From Candidatus Peregrinibacteria bacterium CG2_30_44_17 (lineage in GTDB: Bacteria; Patescibacteriota; Gracilibacteria; UBA1369; UBA12470), in assembly GCA_001873565.1 (NCBI GenBank), contig MNZJ01000003.1, forward strand, positions 1 to 33,875: a stretch of DNA of 33,875 bases. Direction: 5' to 3'. The notes under the pieces were generated by a model, which did no database searches, was not told where the DNA came from, and was given only the letters and a program-made list of their open reading frames with translations. Shown in pieces: positions 22,301 to 29,368 of the stretch (position 1 is the stretch's first letter; every line of letters begins with the position of its first letter). The position numbers and the translations under genes are program-made.

Positions 22301-23572
22301 ATGAATTTACCTGTACTGGTCGCCCCTGGTGGCGACTTTCAGAAGCTGCGCTATGCTTTCACTTATGGCGCCGATGAGGTCTATGTTGGCACGTCCGCTT
22401 TTTCACTCAGGTCTAAGACGTCTAAGATGCAACAAGAAGAGATCCTAAAAGGTAAGGCTTATGCAGATAAGATAGGCAAGAAGCTTAATATTGCTGTAAA
22501 TATCTATCCGCGTAACAACAAAATAGCTGGGATTTACAAGCACATAGAGTGGCTTCGTGATGAGGTTAAGCCTCATGCCATTATTGCCGCTGATGCTGGT
22601 GTTATTTCGATAATAAAAGAAGTCTGGCCCGATGCTAGGATCCATCTTTCCGTTCAAGCCAATAATGTCAACTGGAAGAGTGTTGAGTTTTGGCATAAGC
22701 AAGGCGTTAAGCGTGTCATTCTCTCCAGAGAGCTGCATATTGATGACATTCGTGAGATCAAGAAGAGAGTTCCTACAGTCGAGATCGAGGTGTTTGTCCA
22801 CGGAGCTATATGTATGGCTTATAGTGGGCGATGTTTGATTTCGAATTACATGACGTATCGAGACCCAAACCAAGGAGCTTGTGCGCATTCTTGCAGGTTT
22901 AAATATAAACTGCTCGAAGAGCCGAATAATCTAGGCGTTCTGGAGGATTTGAATGAGAAAAATCTTGTGGCAGAAGAGAGCTTGCGACCCGGAGAATATA
23001 TGCCAATTACAGAGGACGAGCATGGTACATACCTGATGAATTCGCGTGATATGTGCCTTCTTCCTTACTTGAAAGAGCTTATTGATGCAGGTGTAGATGG
23101 ACTTAAAATCGAAGGTCGCAGTAAGACAGTATACTATGCTGCTTGTGTTGTGCGTCTCTATAAGCAGGCTCTTAATGATATAGCTGCTGGTAAACCTTTT
23201 GACGAGTCGTTGATGGAAGAGGCTTATAAGATATCTTCTCGAGGTTATACTCCCGGATTTTTGTTTGGTGACTTGAAAGAGTATTCAATGCGTTACGAGG
23301 CTAACTCTTCTATAGCTAAGGCGAAATTTATTGGCATTATTGGAGAAGAGGTCGCTCCCGGTGAATACTTGGTAAACATCAAGAATCGTCTTGAAGTTGG
23401 TACTGATATCGAAGTCGTCATGCCTGATCGTATAGTTAGTACTAAGGTTACTACTTTCCGCAAAGAAGACGGCTCAGAAGTTGATACCGTACATGGTGGG
23501 GCAGGGGATAGAGTGTTTGTACTCGGCGAGAAAGGGCTTAGTGGAGGTTTGGCGCGGGTACTCTCTCAATAA
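22301..23572 (+). CDS. U32-family peptidase/RNA hydroxylation protein (TrhP/RlhA-like)
   Basis: LVAPGGDFQKLRYAFTYGADEVYVG; EVFVHGAICMAYSGRCLISNYMTYRDPNQGACAHSCRFKY; MNSRDMCLLPYLKELIDAGVDGLKIEGR. Confidence 0.92.
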   Translation: MNLPVLVAPGGDFQKLRYAFTYGADEVYVGTSAFSLRSKTSKMQQEEILKGKAYADKIGKKLNIAVNIYPRNNKIAGIYKHIEWLRDEVKPHAIIAADAGVISIIKEVWPDARIHLSVQANNVNWKSVEFWHKQGVKRVILSRELHIDDIREIKKRVPTVEIEVFVHGAICMAYSGRCLISNYMTYRDPNQGACAHSCRFKYKLLEEPNNLGVLEDLNEKNLVAEESLRPGEYMPITEDEHGTYLMNSRDMCLLPYLKELIDAGVDGLKIEGRSKTVYYAACVVRLYKQALNDIAAGKPFDESLMEEAYKISSRGYTPGFLFGDLKEYSMRYEANSSIAKAKFIGIIGEEVAPGEYLVNIKNRLEVGTDIEVVMPDRIVSTKVTTFRKEDGSEVDTVHGGAGDRVFVLGEKGLSGGLARVLSQ

Positions 23573-24059
23573 TCTCATCAGCTTTTGAAGTTGGGTCTAG
23601 ATCAATGCTGTTGTCGTAAGTTAGGTCTGCATTTGCAAGGTAAATATCTTTTCGTTCGCTCCAAAGAGTCTCGAGTTCTTCCTTGAGGCTCTTAAGGTTT
23701 GTTAGTGGTGGGCGATTTTTGTCGAATGCAATCCGTTCTTCGAGTTTTTCTATGGTTGCCGTTAGGAGTATGACGAATCCAGTGCTTTTTAATTTCTTTG
23801 CGTTCTCATGGTCTATAAAAGTCCCTCCGCCGGTTGCGATTACGAGGTTGTTTTTTTTGCTGATTTCTTCGGCAGCCTGTGATTCGAGATCTCGGAAATG
23901 CGACCATCCGTGTTCGTCGACTAGTTGTGCAATTTTTTTGTTCGCTAATCGTTCGATGTAGCTATCCAGGTCAACAAACTCGCGTCCCAGTTTCGTTGCT
24001 ATGAGTTTCCCGAGTGTGCTTTTTCCGCTACCCCTCATACCTGTTAATATAATGTTCAT
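23538..24059 (-). CDS. aroK: shikimate kinase
   Basis: IILTGMRGSGKSTLGKLIATKLGREFVDLDSYIE; ATGGGTFID; FDKNRPPL. Confidence 0.93.
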   Translation of the reverse strand: MNIILTGMRGSGKSTLGKLIATKLGREFVDLDSYIERLANKKIAQLVDEHGWSHFRDLESQAAEEISKKNNLVIATGGGTFIDHENAKKLKSTGFVILLTATIEKLEERIAFDKNRPPLTNLKSLKEELETLWSERKDIYLANADLTYDNSIDLDPTSKADEIIERVPAPNLH

Positions 24060-25173
24060 ATGCTTTTAGTAAAATTATTGCTAATAATGTCGTGATAGCT
24101 CCTATGATAATTGGTATCTGATGTCCGTAAGCTTCTCCCAGTGGGCCAAACACAAACGAACTTAGTGCCATTGCTGATGTTTGAGTGAGCGTTATTAGTC
24201 CGGAATTGCCGCCTATTCTTTCTTTCTTGAAGAATTGGGAAACCCCTGTATAGAGGAATACGAACATGAATGCGTCTCCTGCTTCGTGTACTGCTCTTCC
24301 TATGAACGATATAGCGACTAGTGGATATAGCATGACTAAATATCCTACTGCCGACATAAGTAGTCCGATTGTCACTATTTTTCGCATTTTTACTCCATTT
24401 TCTATCATCCTGTTGGCGATTCTGACAGATATGAACATGAACACTATAGCTGATCCGATGTACAGCCCCATTTGAGGGAATGAGAGTCCTAGTACTTCTT
24501 TGAGGAATGGTCCATATGAGGTGAATTCGGATCCCATGTGTATTGCAAATGAGAATATGATTGCCATGAAAAGCAAAACGTGTGGCCTGCATATGTCTTT
24601 GCCGTAAGTTTTTGTGTCGAATTTCCATGTCTCGGTATTTGGAAGGAAGGTAGATAAGATAAGTAGGGTCACCAGCATGCCGCATATGACGATTAAGTAT
24701 TTTTGGAAATCCATATAGCCGAGCAGATTGCCACTGAATATAGCTCCTAGGCCTGCTCCTAGCAGAGAGTAGCTTACATATGTCTTGATTCTGTGCGTGG
24801 GGCTTTCTTCGCCTGATGTTTTGTAAAACAAGCTGTCTATCGAGATACCATGTAGATTGCCTCCCAGTCCTCCTATGAAAAACAGTATTAATATGAATGG
24901 AAAGTGTTGCGTTTGGCTTAGCAGTGCCATCTCTATGATGAGAAGCATGAGTCCGATTTGAATGATGCGTTTTGATGTCATTCTGTCGTTGCTGAGTCCG
25001 GTTGGCAGTGTTACGAATAGTCCTGTGATCGTAACGACTGCGAATAGTAATCCTATTTGCGAGCCTGATAATCCTATGCTTGCAAAATATATTGCCCAAT
25101 AAAAAGCCACTGAGTTCATTATGAACTTGTATATTGTCTGAATGACTGTAATGAGCGTGAGTGAGCTTTTCAT
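24028..25173 (-). CDS. MFS transporter inside the shikimate operon
   Basis: Roughly 10-12 predicted TM helices, MFS-like repeats; overlaps aroK by 32 bp and abuts aroA. Confidence 0.85.
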   Translation of the reverse strand: MKSSLTLITVIQTIYKFIMNSVAFYWAIYFASIGLSGSQIGLLFAVVTITGLFVTLPTGLSNDRMTSKRIIQIGLMLLIIEMALLSQTQHFPFILILFFIGGLGGNLHGISIDSLFYKTSGEESPTHRIKTYVSYSLLGAGLGAIFSGNLLGYMDFQKYLIVICGMLVTLLILSTFLPNTETWKFDTKTYGKDICRPHVLLFMAIIFSFAIHMGSEFTSYGPFLKEVLGLSFPQMGLYIGSAIVFMFISVRIANRMIENGVKMRKIVTIGLLMSAVGYLVMLYPLVAISFIGRAVHEAGDAFMFVFLYTGVSQFFKKERIGGNSGLITLTQTSAMALSSFVFGPLGEAYGHQIPIIIGAITTLLAIILLKAYEHYINRYEG

Positions 25174-26346
25174 CTATGAGGTGGCTTTTTGAAAATCTTC
25201 CCAGAAGTTCTTGTAAGTTTTTGATACGCACTGTGGACCTGCGATCTCTATCTCAGGTATGCGTGATTTTAGGACTGCGGCGCACATTGCCATGCGATGG
25301 TCGTCATAAGTTTCGATTGTGGCTCCGTGCAGATCATTTCTGCCGTGGATTATGAGTCCGTCTTCGGCTTCTCGAACTTTTGCTCCTGTCTTTGATAGCT
25401 CTTTTGAAAGTGCAGCGAGCCTGTCAGTTTCTTTGTATCTTAGGTTGTGTAGGCCGGTTAGAGTGCTTTGCCCATTAGCGAAGCAGCATAATGTTGCCAG
25501 TGTCATTGCCGAATCAGGGAGCTCCTTTAGATCAACATTGCCAAGTGGTTTTAGCTCTTTGGGACCTATCACTTGTATTCCTTCTTGGTCTTCTATGACC
25601 CTGCATCCCATCTTTGCCATATAATCCAGGGCTAGTATGTCTGCTTGCAGGCTTTTACGGGTTAGATTGAGTACTTTGACGTCAAATCCCAGTGCTCCCA
25701 GTGCAAAGAAGTAACTTGCGCTGGATGCGTCGGTTTCGATTGCGTATGGACTCGCGAAATTCTCTATCATGCTCTTCGTCATCTCTATGTAAGGCTCTGA
25801 TACTGTCTGTCTTGTGATGATAATCTCCGGATTGCCGAGTAGGGGAGAGGCGAGCATGATTGCCGATATGTATTGACTGCTTATTTCCGATGAGATTTCT
25901 ATCTTTTGTGGTTTTATGCTTGGATCTCCGTGGACTATCAGTGGAGGGCAGTAGTCATTTGATTCTATGTCAAAGCCAATAGAAGTAAGAGCTTCTATTA
26001 AGTCTTTCATTGGTCTTTCTTGCATTCTTTTGTTCCCTGTAATGATCGACGTAAATGGTTGAGTCGCCAGTATGGGTGTCAAAAATCGCATGGCTGTTCC
26101 TGCCAGTCCGATGTCTAGCGTTTTCGAAGGCTTTGCAAAGCGGCCTCCAGAGCCTTGAATTACGATTTCTGTGCTATTTTTTTGTTCAATAAGTACCCCT
26201 AGTTCTCGTAGTGCATTTATGAGATTACGGCTATCATCACAGTCCAGAATGTTAAGTAGCCTCGTTTCTCCTTCCCGTAAAGCCGCAAGAATCAATGCTC
26301 TGTTCATGTAACTCTTAGATGATGGTACGTTGATCTTATTAGTCAT
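25174..26346 (-). CDS. aroA: 3-phosphoshikimate 1-carboxyvinyltransferase (EPSP synthase)
   Basis: VPSSKSYMNRALILAAL; GLAGTAMRFLTPIL; LPDSAMTLATLCCFANGQSTLTGLHNLRYKETDRL; DDHRMAMCAAVL. Confidence 0.96.
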   Translation of the reverse strand: MTNKINVPSSKSYMNRALILAALREGETRLLNILDCDDSRNLINALRELGVLIEQKNSTEIVIQGSGGRFAKPSKTLDIGLAGTAMRFLTPILATQPFTSIITGNKRMQERPMKDLIEALTSIGFDIESNDYCPPLIVHGDPSIKPQKIEISSEISSQYISAIMLASPLLGNPEIIITRQTVSEPYIEMTKSMIENFASPYAIETDASSASYFFALGALGFDVKVLNLTRKSLQADILALDYMAKMGCRVIEDQEGIQVIGPKELKPLGNVDLKELPDSAMTLATLCCFANGQSTLTGLHNLRYKETDRLAALSKELSKTGAKVREAEDGLIIHGRNDLHGATIETYDDHRMAMCAAVLKSRIPEIEIAGPQCVSKTYKNFWEDFQKATS

Positions 26347-27319
26347 ACTTCAGCTTGTTTGTTGTTTGTGCTTTCCCGATTTCATTGACTATGACGAATG
26401 TTGTCTTTCCGCTTATGTTTTTTTTGTCGCGCGCTATGAGTTCTTTTACTTTCTCTCTGCTGATGTTTCGTGGAATCTGTGTTGGCAAACCGTACAGTTT
26501 AAGTAGTTCTGCGATTTCCTCTGTATTTTTGGCTTTGGAGAGGAGGTTGACTTGATGCATCCCTATGGAGACAGCTTCGCCATGACTTATCTTGTAATTT
26601 GATGCTTGCTCTATGGCATGGCCGATCGTGTGACCGTAGTTAAGTAGCATGCGTAAGCCTTTTTCTTTCTCGTCTTTTTCTACTATGGCGATTTTGACCG
26701 CCGACGACTGAGTAATTAATTTGTTCAAGATGGCGGTGTCTTTTGCAAGGATTTTCTTGCGATTTTTCTTGAGGAAATCGAATAGCTTTGGATCTCTGAT
26801 GCATGCATGTTTGATTGATTCCGCTACGCCGTTTAGGAGCTCTTTCTTGGGTAGGGTATTCAGGAATTCAGGGTCAATTAGTGTGGTTATAGGCTGCAAA
26901 AATGTGCCTACGAGGTTTTTCCCGTTTGGAAGGTTGACTCCTGTTTTGCCGCCGATACTTGAGTCGACCATCGATAGCAGTGTAGTTGGCATTTGGATGT
27001 ATGGAATCCCTCTCATGTAAACAGAGGCAAGGAATCCTGTGAAATCTCCTATTACGCCTCCGCCCAGAGCAATGAGACAGCTTCCGCGGTCAAGACCTAG
27101 ATTAGCAAGTCTTTCTGCTGCTATTTCGATATTTTTGAGCTTCTTTAGGTCTTCTCCTGCCGGTTTGACTATGACGTCTATATCGTCAGGTAGATCTTTT
27201 CCGTAATGTTTGTAAACATTCTCATCCGTGATGATACAGTACCAATTTCTGCCAAGTTGTTTTAAAACTTGTTTGAGATCTTTAAGTAAACCTGTTTTTA
27301 TTTGGACTGTGACTTTCAT
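26339..27319 (-). CDS. aroB: 3-dehydroquinate synthase
   Basis: ALGGGVIGDFTGFLASVYMRGIPYIQMPTTLLSMVDSSIGGKTGVNLPNGKNLVGTFLQP; MLLNYGHTIGHAIE; SHGEAVSIGM. Confidence 0.97.
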   Translation of the reverse strand: MKVTVQIKTGLLKDLKQVLKQLGRNWYCIITDENVYKHYGKDLPDDIDVIVKPAGEDLKKLKNIEIAAERLANLGLDRGSCLIALGGGVIGDFTGFLASVYMRGIPYIQMPTTLLSMVDSSIGGKTGVNLPNGKNLVGTFLQPITTLIDPEFLNTLPKKELLNGVAESIKHACIRDPKLFDFLKKNRKKILAKDTAILNKLITQSSAVKIAIVEKDEKEKGLRMLLNYGHTIGHAIEQASNYKISHGEAVSIGMHQVNLLSKAKNTEEIAELLKLYGLPTQIPRNISREKVKELIARDKKNISGKTTFVIVNEIGKAQTTNKLKYD

Positions 27320-28342
27320 TTAATTAGTATTAACTGTTCTTCCGACTGCTGCAGCTACCGGACCCATCTTGAGAATTAAATCCGAGAACTCTTCAGGTGT
27401 AATAGATTGATCTCCATCAGATAGTGCTTCCTCTGGGTTTGGATGGACTTCTATTATGAGACCGTCAGCTCCTGCGGCTATCGATGCAAGGGATGCCGGT
27501 TTGACCAAGCTGGCTATACCTGTTGCGTGACTAGGGTCTACTATAAGCGGCAAATGGCTTAGTTCTTTTATGCGTGCTACTGCCCCTATGGAAAGAGTAT
27601 TTCGCATATCGTCTTCGTAAGTCCTGATTCCACGTTCGCATAATATCACTTCGCCGTTTCCTCCTGATAGTAAGTATTCCGCCGCAAGCAAGAATTCTTT
27701 CATAGTTGCACATAGTCCTCGTTTGAGCATTACGGGTTTCCTGATTTTGGAAAGCTCTCTGAGGAGTGTGAAATTCTGCATGTTGCGTGCGCCAATCTGA
27801 AGTATGTCTGTGTATTTCATTACTGTGTCGATATGGCGTGCGTCCATGATCTCCGTAATCATTATCATGTTGTTGGCGTCTGCCGCTTTGCGCATCATCT
27901 TGAGTCCTTCCTCTTTGTGTCCTTCGAAAGAGTATGGCCCTGTCCTGGGTTTGTAAGCTCCTCCTCTGAGGATTTTTGCTCCGGCTTTTGATACCGCCCT
28001 TGCGGTTACGTCCATCTGTTCCTGGCTTTCGACACTGCAAGGTCCTGCCATGATGGCGATCTCTTCGCCTCCGATTTTTACTCCTTTGACGTCGATTATT
28101 GTCGCTTCCGGTTTGCTCTCTCGTGATGCGAGTTTATAGGGTTGGAGGACAGGCATAACTTGTCCTACGCTTGGCATTGCACGTAAGTGACCGATGTCGA
28201 GTTTGCGTTCGTCTCCGATTACGGCGATTACAGTACGTTCGACGCCGTATAGTGGCACCGGTTCGAAACCTTGTTTTTGCAGCTCTGTAATAATATGGTC
28301 TGCGTGCTCCCTTGGAGCGTATCTTTTCATTACGATAATCAT
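27320..28342 (-). CDS. aroF: type I-beta 3-deoxy-7-phosphoheptulonate (DAHP) synthase with N-terminal ferredoxin-like domain
   Basis: [79 protein letters not shown]. Confidence 0.96.
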
Positions 28343-28349
28343 TTTAGTA

Positions 28350-28380
28350 GGGGATAGGGTATAGGGTATAGGGTGTAGGG
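28350..28380 (+). repeat. G-run repeat (G-quadruplex motif) immediately 5' of the DAHP synthase start
   Basis: GGGGATAGGGTATAGGGTATAGGGTGTAGGG: five G-runs, loops of 3-4 nt. Confidence 0.75.
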
Positions 28381-28476
28381 ACTGGTGGGGCGATTTTCAA
28401 AATACCTTCAGAAGGGGCCTTTAGCAAACAGATTGCCGTCTATGGTTTCATCCATTTTCGTTGTTTTTTAAGGAAT

Positions 28477-28508
28477 AAAAAAAGTCCTCATAAATTCTTA
28501 GCATGAGG
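28477..28508 (-). terminator. attenuator terminator of the shikimate operon leader
   Basis: Minus strand CCTCAT-GCTAAGAATTT-ATGAGG-AC-TTTTTTT. Confidence 0.75.
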
Positions 28509-28545
28509 GTTGGCGGAGCGGTATAAAGTCGTTACCCTATGCTAA
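28498..28545 (-). promoter_or_regulatory. antiterminator stem competing with the terminator
   Basis: TTAGCATAGGGT (28545-28534) pairs with ACCCT-C-ATGCTAA (28510-28498): 12 bp, one bulged nt. Confidence 0.75.
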
Positions 28546-28604
28546 AAATTAGTAAAATAAAAGTAAGCCCAGACGAACGGCAAATTTTGACTTACTTTTT
28601 GCAT
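28542..28604 (-). CDS. aromatic amino acid leader peptide MQKVSQNLPFVWAYFYFTNF*
   Basis: ATG CAA AAA GTA AGT CAA AAT TTG CCG TTC GTC TGG GCT TAC TTT TAT TTT ACT AAT TTT TAG; 7/20 aromatic codons, 17-20 nt after the expected TSS. Confidence 0.8.
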   Translation of the reverse strand: MQKVSQNLPFVWAYFYFTNF

Positions 28605-28627
28605 GAGGTTTTGATAAATTCGATAAG

Positions 28628-28656
28628 ACTTTACCGCTGAAATTTTTAATTGTCAA
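28628..28656 (-). promoter_or_regulatory. promoter TTGACA-17-TAAAGT of the shikimate operon leader
   Basis: Minus strand TTGACA 28656-28651; TAAAGT 28633-28628. Confidence 0.65.
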
Positions 28657-28660
28657 ATTC

Positions 28661-29368
28661 ATGGTTATAGATACGCATGCTCATCTTGATTTCCATCAGT
28701 TTGACGAAGATCGTGACGAAGTGATTAAGCGTGCAATTGATGCAGGAGTTGAGAGGATTGTTTGTTGTGGTTGCGACACAGAGTCGTCTAAGAGATGTAT
28801 CGATTTGGCGAAGCAGTATGACCTGATTGATGCGACTGTCGGGATTCATCCGAGCGACGCAGATCAATGGAACGATGAAGTTGCGAACAATTTTGTTGTT
28901 CAAAGTGCTCTAAGTGAGGTGGTTGCGATAGGGGAGATAGGGCTTGATTATTACCGTATGAGGCATTCTGAAGATATGCAGAAGAAGGCTTTTCGCGAGC
29001 AGCTTGCTTTGGCCAAGGAGGTCGGTTTGCCTGTTATTATCCATACGAGAGACTCTGCTCGTGATGTGTATGATTTACTCATTGAGTCAGGTTTGGAGCG
29101 TGTGACGTTGCACTGTTTTAACGAATCTCTTGAGTTCGCCGAAAAAGCGTGGGCCAGAGGCTGGAAGCTCGGGTTTGGTGGTACTATCACTTATCCGAAG
29201 AACGAAGAGCTGCGCAAGGTTGTTGCTGCCGCGCCCGAAGGCTTGTTTGTGCTTGAGACCGATTGTCCTTTCTTGCCTCCGCAAAGTCATCGAGGCGAGA
29301 GAAATGAGCCTGCGTTTATTACTGAAGTTGCTGCGGTCGTTTCCGATATTAGGCGTTATCAAGAGTGA
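28661..29368 (+). CDS. tatD: TatD-family metal-dependent hydrolase
   Basis: MVIDTHAHLDFHQFDEDRDEVI; ATVGIHPSDA; AIGEIGLDYYRM; PVIIHTRDS; LHCFNES; LETDCPFLPPQSHRGERNEP. Confidence 0.95.
   Translation: MVIDTHAHLDFHQFDEDRDEVIKRAIDAGVERIVCCGCDTESSKRCIDLAKQYDLIDATVGIHPSDADQWNDEVANNFVVQSALSEVVAIGEIGLDYYRMRHSEDMQKKAFREQLALAKEVGLPVIIHTRDSARDVYDLLIESGLERVTLHCFNESLEFAEKAWARGWKLGFGGTITYPKNEELRKVVAAAPEGLFVLETDCPFLPPQSHRGERNEPAFITEVAAVVSDIRRYQE

What the first reader, a model, noticed from the sequence alone, without database searches (positions are those of the whole stretch)
28542..28604. Unannotated aromatic leader peptide (MQKVSQNLPFVWAYFYFTNF*) upstream of the shikimate operon
Seen directly: in the divergent gap between the DAHP synthase gene and tatD, a minus-strand promoter (TTGACA-17-TAAAGT) is followed by a 20-codon ORF. 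It carries F, W, Y, F, Y, F, F, five of them in a run of eight residues (FVWAYFYF). The first downstream gene is DAHP synthase, the committed step to Phe, Tyr and Trp. Established: trpL and pheL leaders use clustered codons for the regulated amino acid to stall ribosomes. Inference: this leader senses all three end products at once and controls DAHPS-aroB-aroA-MFS-aroK. It is below the ORF-track length cutoff. I know of no description of such a mixed Phe/Tyr/Trp attenuator in CPR-type bacteria, but could not search.
Basis: partly seen in the sequence, partly recalled or inferred. Interest (0 to 1): 0.96.

Follow-up and report, generated by a model that had tools for sequence, protein, structure and literature searches.

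The report
Aromatic leader-peptide attenuator before shikimate operon
A 20-codon mini-gene rich in phenylalanine, tyrosine and tryptophan codons sits in front of the shikimate operon of a Peregrinibacteria-type (CPR/Patescibacteria) bacterium and most likely works as a ribosome-driven on/off switch that lets the cell make aromatic amino acids only when they run short; the same device recurs across its class, and a related one turned up in Woesearchaeota archaea.

Summary
A minus-strand ORF (28604..28542, MQKVSQNLPFVWAYFYFTNF*) lies between a TTGACA-17-TAAAGT promoter and the DAHP synthase-aroB-aroA-MFS-aroK operon. The cluster holds six aromatic residues in eight, not five. Comparative evidence is strong. 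Among 95 DAHP-synthase upstream regions of the class, 41 carry a short ORF with at least 6 aromatics in 8, against 0.3 expected from shuffles. Each antiterminator strand matches its own terminator arm far better than another genome's (0 of 20,000 permutations, n=50). Antiterminator position tracks the last aromatic codon (r=0.88). Trp codons are largely missing from leaders of genomes that lack Trp biosynthesis (Fisher p=0.0007). The mechanism is known (trpL/pheL; C. glutamicum aroR before a DAHP synthase gene). New are the mixed Phe/Tyr/Trp sensor and its spread through a Patescibacteria class. Unexpectedly, Woesearchaeota DAHP-synthase operons carry aromatic mini-ORFs too (18 of 40 against 0.26 expected), followed at once by a covarying hairpin: a candidate archaeal counterpart. 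No expression data exist for either.

The parts
28628..28656 (-). sigma-70-type promoter, TTGACA (28656-28651), 17-nt spacer, TAAAGT (28633-28628); implied 5'UTR about 16 nt, no Shine-Dalgarno
   Evidence: relatives: 28 of 50 leaders have a promoter of at least 10/12 just upstream against 1.7 expected
28542..28604 (-). leader ORF MQKVSQNLPFVWAYFYFTNF*, aromatic codons F10 W12 Y14 F15 Y16 F17 F20
28559..28599 (-). possible 1:2 (pause-type) hairpin inside the ORF, AAAAGUAAGUC (28599-28589) with GGCUUACUUUU (28569-28559)
   Evidence: fold; not tested in relatives
28534..28546 (-). antiterminator 5' strand UUUAGCAUAGGGU, overlapping the leader stop codon
28497..28510 (-). antiterminator 3' strand ACCCUCAUGCUAAG, which contains the terminator 5' arm
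28477..28508 (-). intrinsic terminator: CCUCAUG (28508-28502), loop, UAUGAGG (28492-28486), then AC and UUUUUUU (28483-28477)
   Evidence: similar place after the stop in relatives.
27320..28342 (-). DAHP synthase, type I-beta with ferredoxin-like N-terminal domain; first structural gene
26339..27319 (-). aroB, 3-dehydroquinate synthase
25174..26346 (-). aroA, EPSP synthase
24028..25173 (-). MFS transporter
23538..24059 (-). aroK, shikimate kinase

Best explanation
A ribosome-mediated transcription attenuator that reads the charging of tRNA-Phe, tRNA-Tyr and tRNA-Trp together. When all three are plentiful the ribosome reaches the leader stop codon and covers the antiterminator 5' strand, so the terminator forms before DAHP synthase and transcription stops. 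When any of them runs short the ribosome stalls in the FVWAYFYF run, the strand stays free, pairs with the terminator's 5' arm, and RNA polymerase reads on into DAHPS-aroB-aroA-MFS-aroK. Shown by sequence: the ORF, the mutually exclusive stems, their covariation, the codon-stem spacing and the link between Trp codons and Trp synthesis. Inferred: translation, stalling, termination and the direction of the response.
For: Leader density across the class 41/95 against 0.3 expected, while 67 DAHPS upstream regions kept from the genome-contig search, mostly of other phyla, show 2. Of the leaders, 52 have a hairpin plus U-tract beginning within 45 nt of the stop. Antiterminator strand pairs with its own terminator arm at -13.6 kcal/mol against -7.8 for permuted partners, 0/20,000, n=50; at least half the arm is paired in 46 of 52. 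Antiterminator start follows the last aromatic codon of the cluster by 11.7 nt (sd 3.4), r=0.88 over 43 hand-transcribed pairs, about the distance from an A-site codon to a ribosome's leading edge (general knowledge). Trp codons against Trp pathway: 20/7/1/9, Fisher p=0.0007; in the window's own family G002 lacks trp genes and its leader reads FAFYFYF where G000 and G001 read WAYFYF. Leader ORFs of close relatives change mainly at synonymous sites, pooled ratio 0.39. Prephenate dehydratase and dehydrogenase are in 33 of 37 leader genomes each.
Against: No RNA-seq, ribosome profiling or reporter data. Of 95 class members with this DAHPS, 38 show no ORF with even 5 of 8 aromatics within 350 nt. 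Seven genomes keep the Trp codon without detected Trp genes (G034 and G036, and G046, G048 and G049, are congeners of Trp-making genomes; G041 is an 89% complete MAG; G085 is unexplained), and G017 has Trp genes but no Trp codon. The window's own terminator stem is modest (-5.8 to -7.3 kcal/mol). Related genomes are not independent, so permutation and Fisher values overstate significance somewhat.
Confidence: 0.9

Rival explanations
1. An arrest (nascent-chain) peptide: the conserved [WF]-[AG]-[FY]-[YF]-F stretch stalls the ribosome by binding a free aromatic amino acid in the exit tunnel, as TnaC does with Trp.
For: The core is more uniform than codon counting alone demands, with a recurrent small residue (A or G) in the middle, and some families keep an N-terminal motif such as SKVKIAVLKNP.
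Against: Order and number of aromatics vary freely between families; Trp mostly drops out where Trp is not made; arrest on excess product would switch a biosynthetic operon on at the wrong time.
Confidence: 0.06
2. A chance ORF beside a DAHP-synthase gene controlled in another way (repressor, riboswitch or T-box).
For: Taken alone, 0.3% of shuffles of this region give such an ORF; this genome does hold a TrpR-type repressor, beside trpE.
Against: Class-wide recurrence, covariation and spacing; no Rfam family matches.
Confidence: 0.02
3. The leader acts on translation of DAHP synthase, or its peptide acts in trans (peTrpL-like), rather than on transcription termination.
For: A leader peptide acting in trans is described in Sinorhizobium meliloti (PMC7298713, abstract read only).
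Against: Hairpin plus U-tract shortly after the stop in most relatives, well upstream of the DAHPS start in the window (134 nt); that the DAHPS start itself is not sequestered was not tested in the bacteria.
Confidence: 0.02

Closest known systems
Corynebacterium glutamicum aroR leader before aroF (DAHP synthase), Neshat et al. 2014 as cited in PMC11802643; PMC4046766
   Same: Leader peptide with clustered aromatic codons upstream of a DAHP-synthase gene; ribosome-mediated attenuation
   Different: aroR has Phe-Tyr-Phe and, per the review, responds under Phe limitation; no Trp codon is mentioned. Here Phe, Tyr and Trp are mixed in one run, in a distant phylum, and the antiterminator spans the stop codon. 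Homology not tested.
Enterobacterial trpL and pheL attenuators (Rfam Trp_leader, Phe_leader)
   Same: Leader codons for the end product, competing terminator and antiterminator, control by ribosome position
   Different: One amino acid each, controlling a terminal branch; no Rfam match to this region
Multivalent leaders of branched-chain and thr operons (general knowledge; C. glutamicum ilvBNC, PMC11857589, abstract only)
   Same: One leader can report on several amino acids
   Different: Different pathway and amino acids; not aromatic

Membership tests
Ribosome-mediated transcription attenuator (trpL/pheL type) | Short ORF with clustered codons for the pathway's product between promoter and first gene | tested here: met
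Ribosome-mediated transcription attenuator (trpL/pheL type) | Intrinsic terminator between leader ORF and first gene | tested here: met
   in silico
Ribosome-mediated transcription attenuator (trpL/pheL type) | Antiterminator mutually exclusive with the terminator | tested here: met
Ribosome-mediated transcription attenuator (trpL/pheL type) | Antiterminator strand free when stalled at control codons, covered at the stop | tested here: met
   spacing 11.7 nt sd 3.4; footprint length is general knowledge
Ribosome-mediated transcription attenuator (trpL/pheL type) | Starvation for the amino acid relieves termination | not testable with these tools
   no expression data
Rfam leader families, T-box, known riboswitches | Covariance-model match | tested here: not met
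   cmscan of 28200-28800, E up to 1, no hit
C. glutamicum aroR | Leader before a DAHP-synthase gene with aromatic codons | tested here: met
   description of aroR from PMC11802643
C. glutamicum aroR | Common descent of leader or RNA | not tested
   sequence of aroR not fetched
Arrest peptide (TnaC type) | Stall depends on peptide sequence, not codon charging | tested here: inconclusive
   conserved core, but variable order and Trp loss

The most novel reading that the evidence does not exclude
Aromatic leader ORFs control the shikimate operon in both a Patescibacteria class and Woesearchaeota archaea. In about half of the archaeal cases examined the ORF starts where the TATA box would set the transcription start; it ends in an F/Y/W run, and a covarying hairpin begins at its stop codon, with no bacterial-type terminator evident so far: a ribosome-mediated amino-acid attenuator in Archaea, apparently not described before.
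Probability: 0.6. Interest if true: 0.92.

Novelty: new variant of a known kind. Interest (0 to 1): 0.74.

Why it matters
It extends ribosome-mediated attenuation to ultra-small, uncultured Patescibacteria, as a single sensor for all three aromatic amino acids at the committed step, and the loss of the Trp codon with the Trp pathway is a natural experiment on how such sensors evolve. The archaeal mini-ORFs, if functional, would open a mode of regulation not known to me in Archaea to direct test.

Tried and rejected
Rfam scan of the region gave nothing. A strict WA[F/Y]4 DNA pattern over the window's genome found only this leader and what reads as the terminator of a cold-shock-type gene, no second aromatic leader. 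The trp operon of this genome has no Trp leader but a TrpR-type gene before trpE. The idea that the archaeal hairpin sequesters the DAHPS ribosome-binding site was tested and not supported. The idea that archaeal leaders came over with a CPR-derived operon is not favoured: Woesearchaeota DAHPS with leaders fall in several separate clades (FastTree, some weak supports). Misbinning was checked by reading contig neighbours: Pelota or replication factor C small subunit on L244, L245, L246 and L060; other archaeal contigs were not checked this way. Literature: no CPR or archaeal aromatic attenuator found in the held PMC library, which lacks most subscription journals.

Full report
What is there. 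The window is contig C35 of a 1.17-Mb genome whose nearest named relative is a Peregrinibacteria MAG, RIFOXYA2_FULL_41_18 (DAHPS 76% identical). On the minus strand, between divergent tatD and DAHP synthase, lie a promoter (28656-28628), a 20-codon ORF (28604-28542), an antiterminator (28546-28534 with 28510-28497), a terminator (28508-28477) and, 134 nt further on, the DAHPS start. The leader RNA folds better than 200 dinucleotide shuffles, z -3.96. The antiterminator's 3' strand contains the terminator's 5' arm, so the two stems exclude each other.

Conservation. I took the DNA upstream of relatives of this DAHPS in 353 genomes of the class. Scored as the densest 8-residue window of any short ORF within 350 nt, 41 of 95 regions reach 6 aromatics, against 0.3 expected from dinucleotide shuffles scored the same way. 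Examples: WAFFYFYF, FWGFYFYP, WGFFYFYF, FWAFYYFP, YFFGFYF, WFAFYFFYF. In 67 DAHPS upstream regions drawn from the genome-contig search, mostly Omnitrophota and other phyla, 2 reach 6. In close relatives the ORF changes mainly at synonymous sites; the group labelled WAFFYF there is misaligned by an indel and is not informative.

Switch anatomy. In 52 leaders a hairpin followed by a U-tract begins within 45 nt of the stop; in 46 at least half of its 5' arm can pair instead with the stop-codon region. In the 50 used for the partner test, each stop region pairs with its own terminator arm at -13.6 kcal/mol on average, against -7.8 (sd 0.40) with arms of other genomes, 0 of 20,000 permutations as low. 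That is covariation without needing an alignment. Seven of the 50 were not entered; I chose the entries after seeing the table, dropping rows with a weak antiterminator or an ill-placed cluster and near-duplicates, so r is somewhat flattered. A ribosome with that codon in its A site reaches about 12 nt downstream (general knowledge), so stalling in the run leaves the strand free and arrival at the stop covers it.

What it senses. Order-wide, leaders with and without Trp codons were compared with presence of trpC or trpD: 20 with both, 9 with neither, 7 with the codon only, 1 with genes only; Fisher p=0.0007. The labels were set by hand from the listings and relatives are not independent. Two close comparisons: G000 and G001 make Trp and read WAYFYF, family member G002 does not and reads FAFYFYF; G029 reads LQWLVDFYFYF and has trp genes, G030 reads FQFMADFYFYF and has none. 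This genome has a fused TyrA-PheA protein and a trp operon.

Archaeal counterpart. Some Woesearchaeota loci had similar ORFs, so I searched their class and order. Of 40 archaeal DAHPS upstream regions, 18 reach 6 of 8 aromatics against 0.26 expected, and 10 reach 7 against 0.00. Among 20 leaders examined, a TATA element is centred 26-29 nt before the ATG in ten: L204, L205, L208, L209, L210, L221, L225, L227, L228 and L231, where a leaderless transcript would put it. In L232, L235, L237 and L240 it lies 53-56 nt before the ATG shown, for which an upstream in-frame ATG is an alternative start; in L222 it is at -49, in L223 at -22 of the peptide segment used there, and in L213, L214, L234 and L236 none matched. 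A hairpin starts at the leader stop: stop region against downstream DNA -15.6 kcal/mol own, -9.5 permuted, 0 of 20,000, n=17 (one of the four near-identical leaders kept); a control region before the stop shows nothing, nor does pairing with the DAHPS start. Contig neighbours are archaeal where checked: Pelota on L244, L245 and L246, RfcS on L246 and L060. Leader-bearing archaeal DAHPS fall in several clades. I could not say what the hairpin does: no terminator of the bacterial kind was evident in the sequences, but none was searched for systematically there.

Prior knowledge. C. glutamicum aroR is the closest precedent (PMC11802643, PMC4046766). [quoted passage not shown] I found no report for CPR or for archaeal aromatic genes in the held library.

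Limits. All evidence is comparative; genomes are MAGs; leader choice in relatives takes the densest ORF (matched in the shuffles); promoter matches are consensus only, though 28 of 50 leaders have one of at least 10/12 against 1.7 expected from mononucleotide shuffles, the start codon being chosen for the best promoter in the real sequences only, which favours the observed count.

Noticed in passing
L204, L205, L208-L210, L213, L214, L221-L223, L225, L227, L228, L231, L232, L234-L237, L240 (Woesearchaeota): Aromatic mini-ORFs before DAHP synthase in archaea, with a hairpin beginning at the stop codon in most; TATA centred 26-29 nt before the ATG in ten of the twenty
   Followed up: partly
G000:C28, L196:2383-2649: A TrpR-type repressor gene (PF01371) directly before trpE in this genome, so the trp operon and the shikimate operon seem to be controlled by different devices
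   Followed up: partly
28343-28376: A short tandem repeat on the minus strand (CCCTATA units; three matches to TACCCTATACCC with up to one mismatch, 0.03 expected in the window) just before the DAHPS start; its TACCCTAT could pair with AUAGGGUA of the antiterminator strand
   Followed up: partly
L008, L029, L119, L123, L127 leaders: A conserved N-terminal stretch (KVKIAVLKNP-like) in leaders of several genera; perhaps RNA pairing with the aromatic codons, not tested
   Followed up: no
L201 (G001:C8): A second DAHP synthase lies inside a trp gene cluster in a family relative
   Followed up: no
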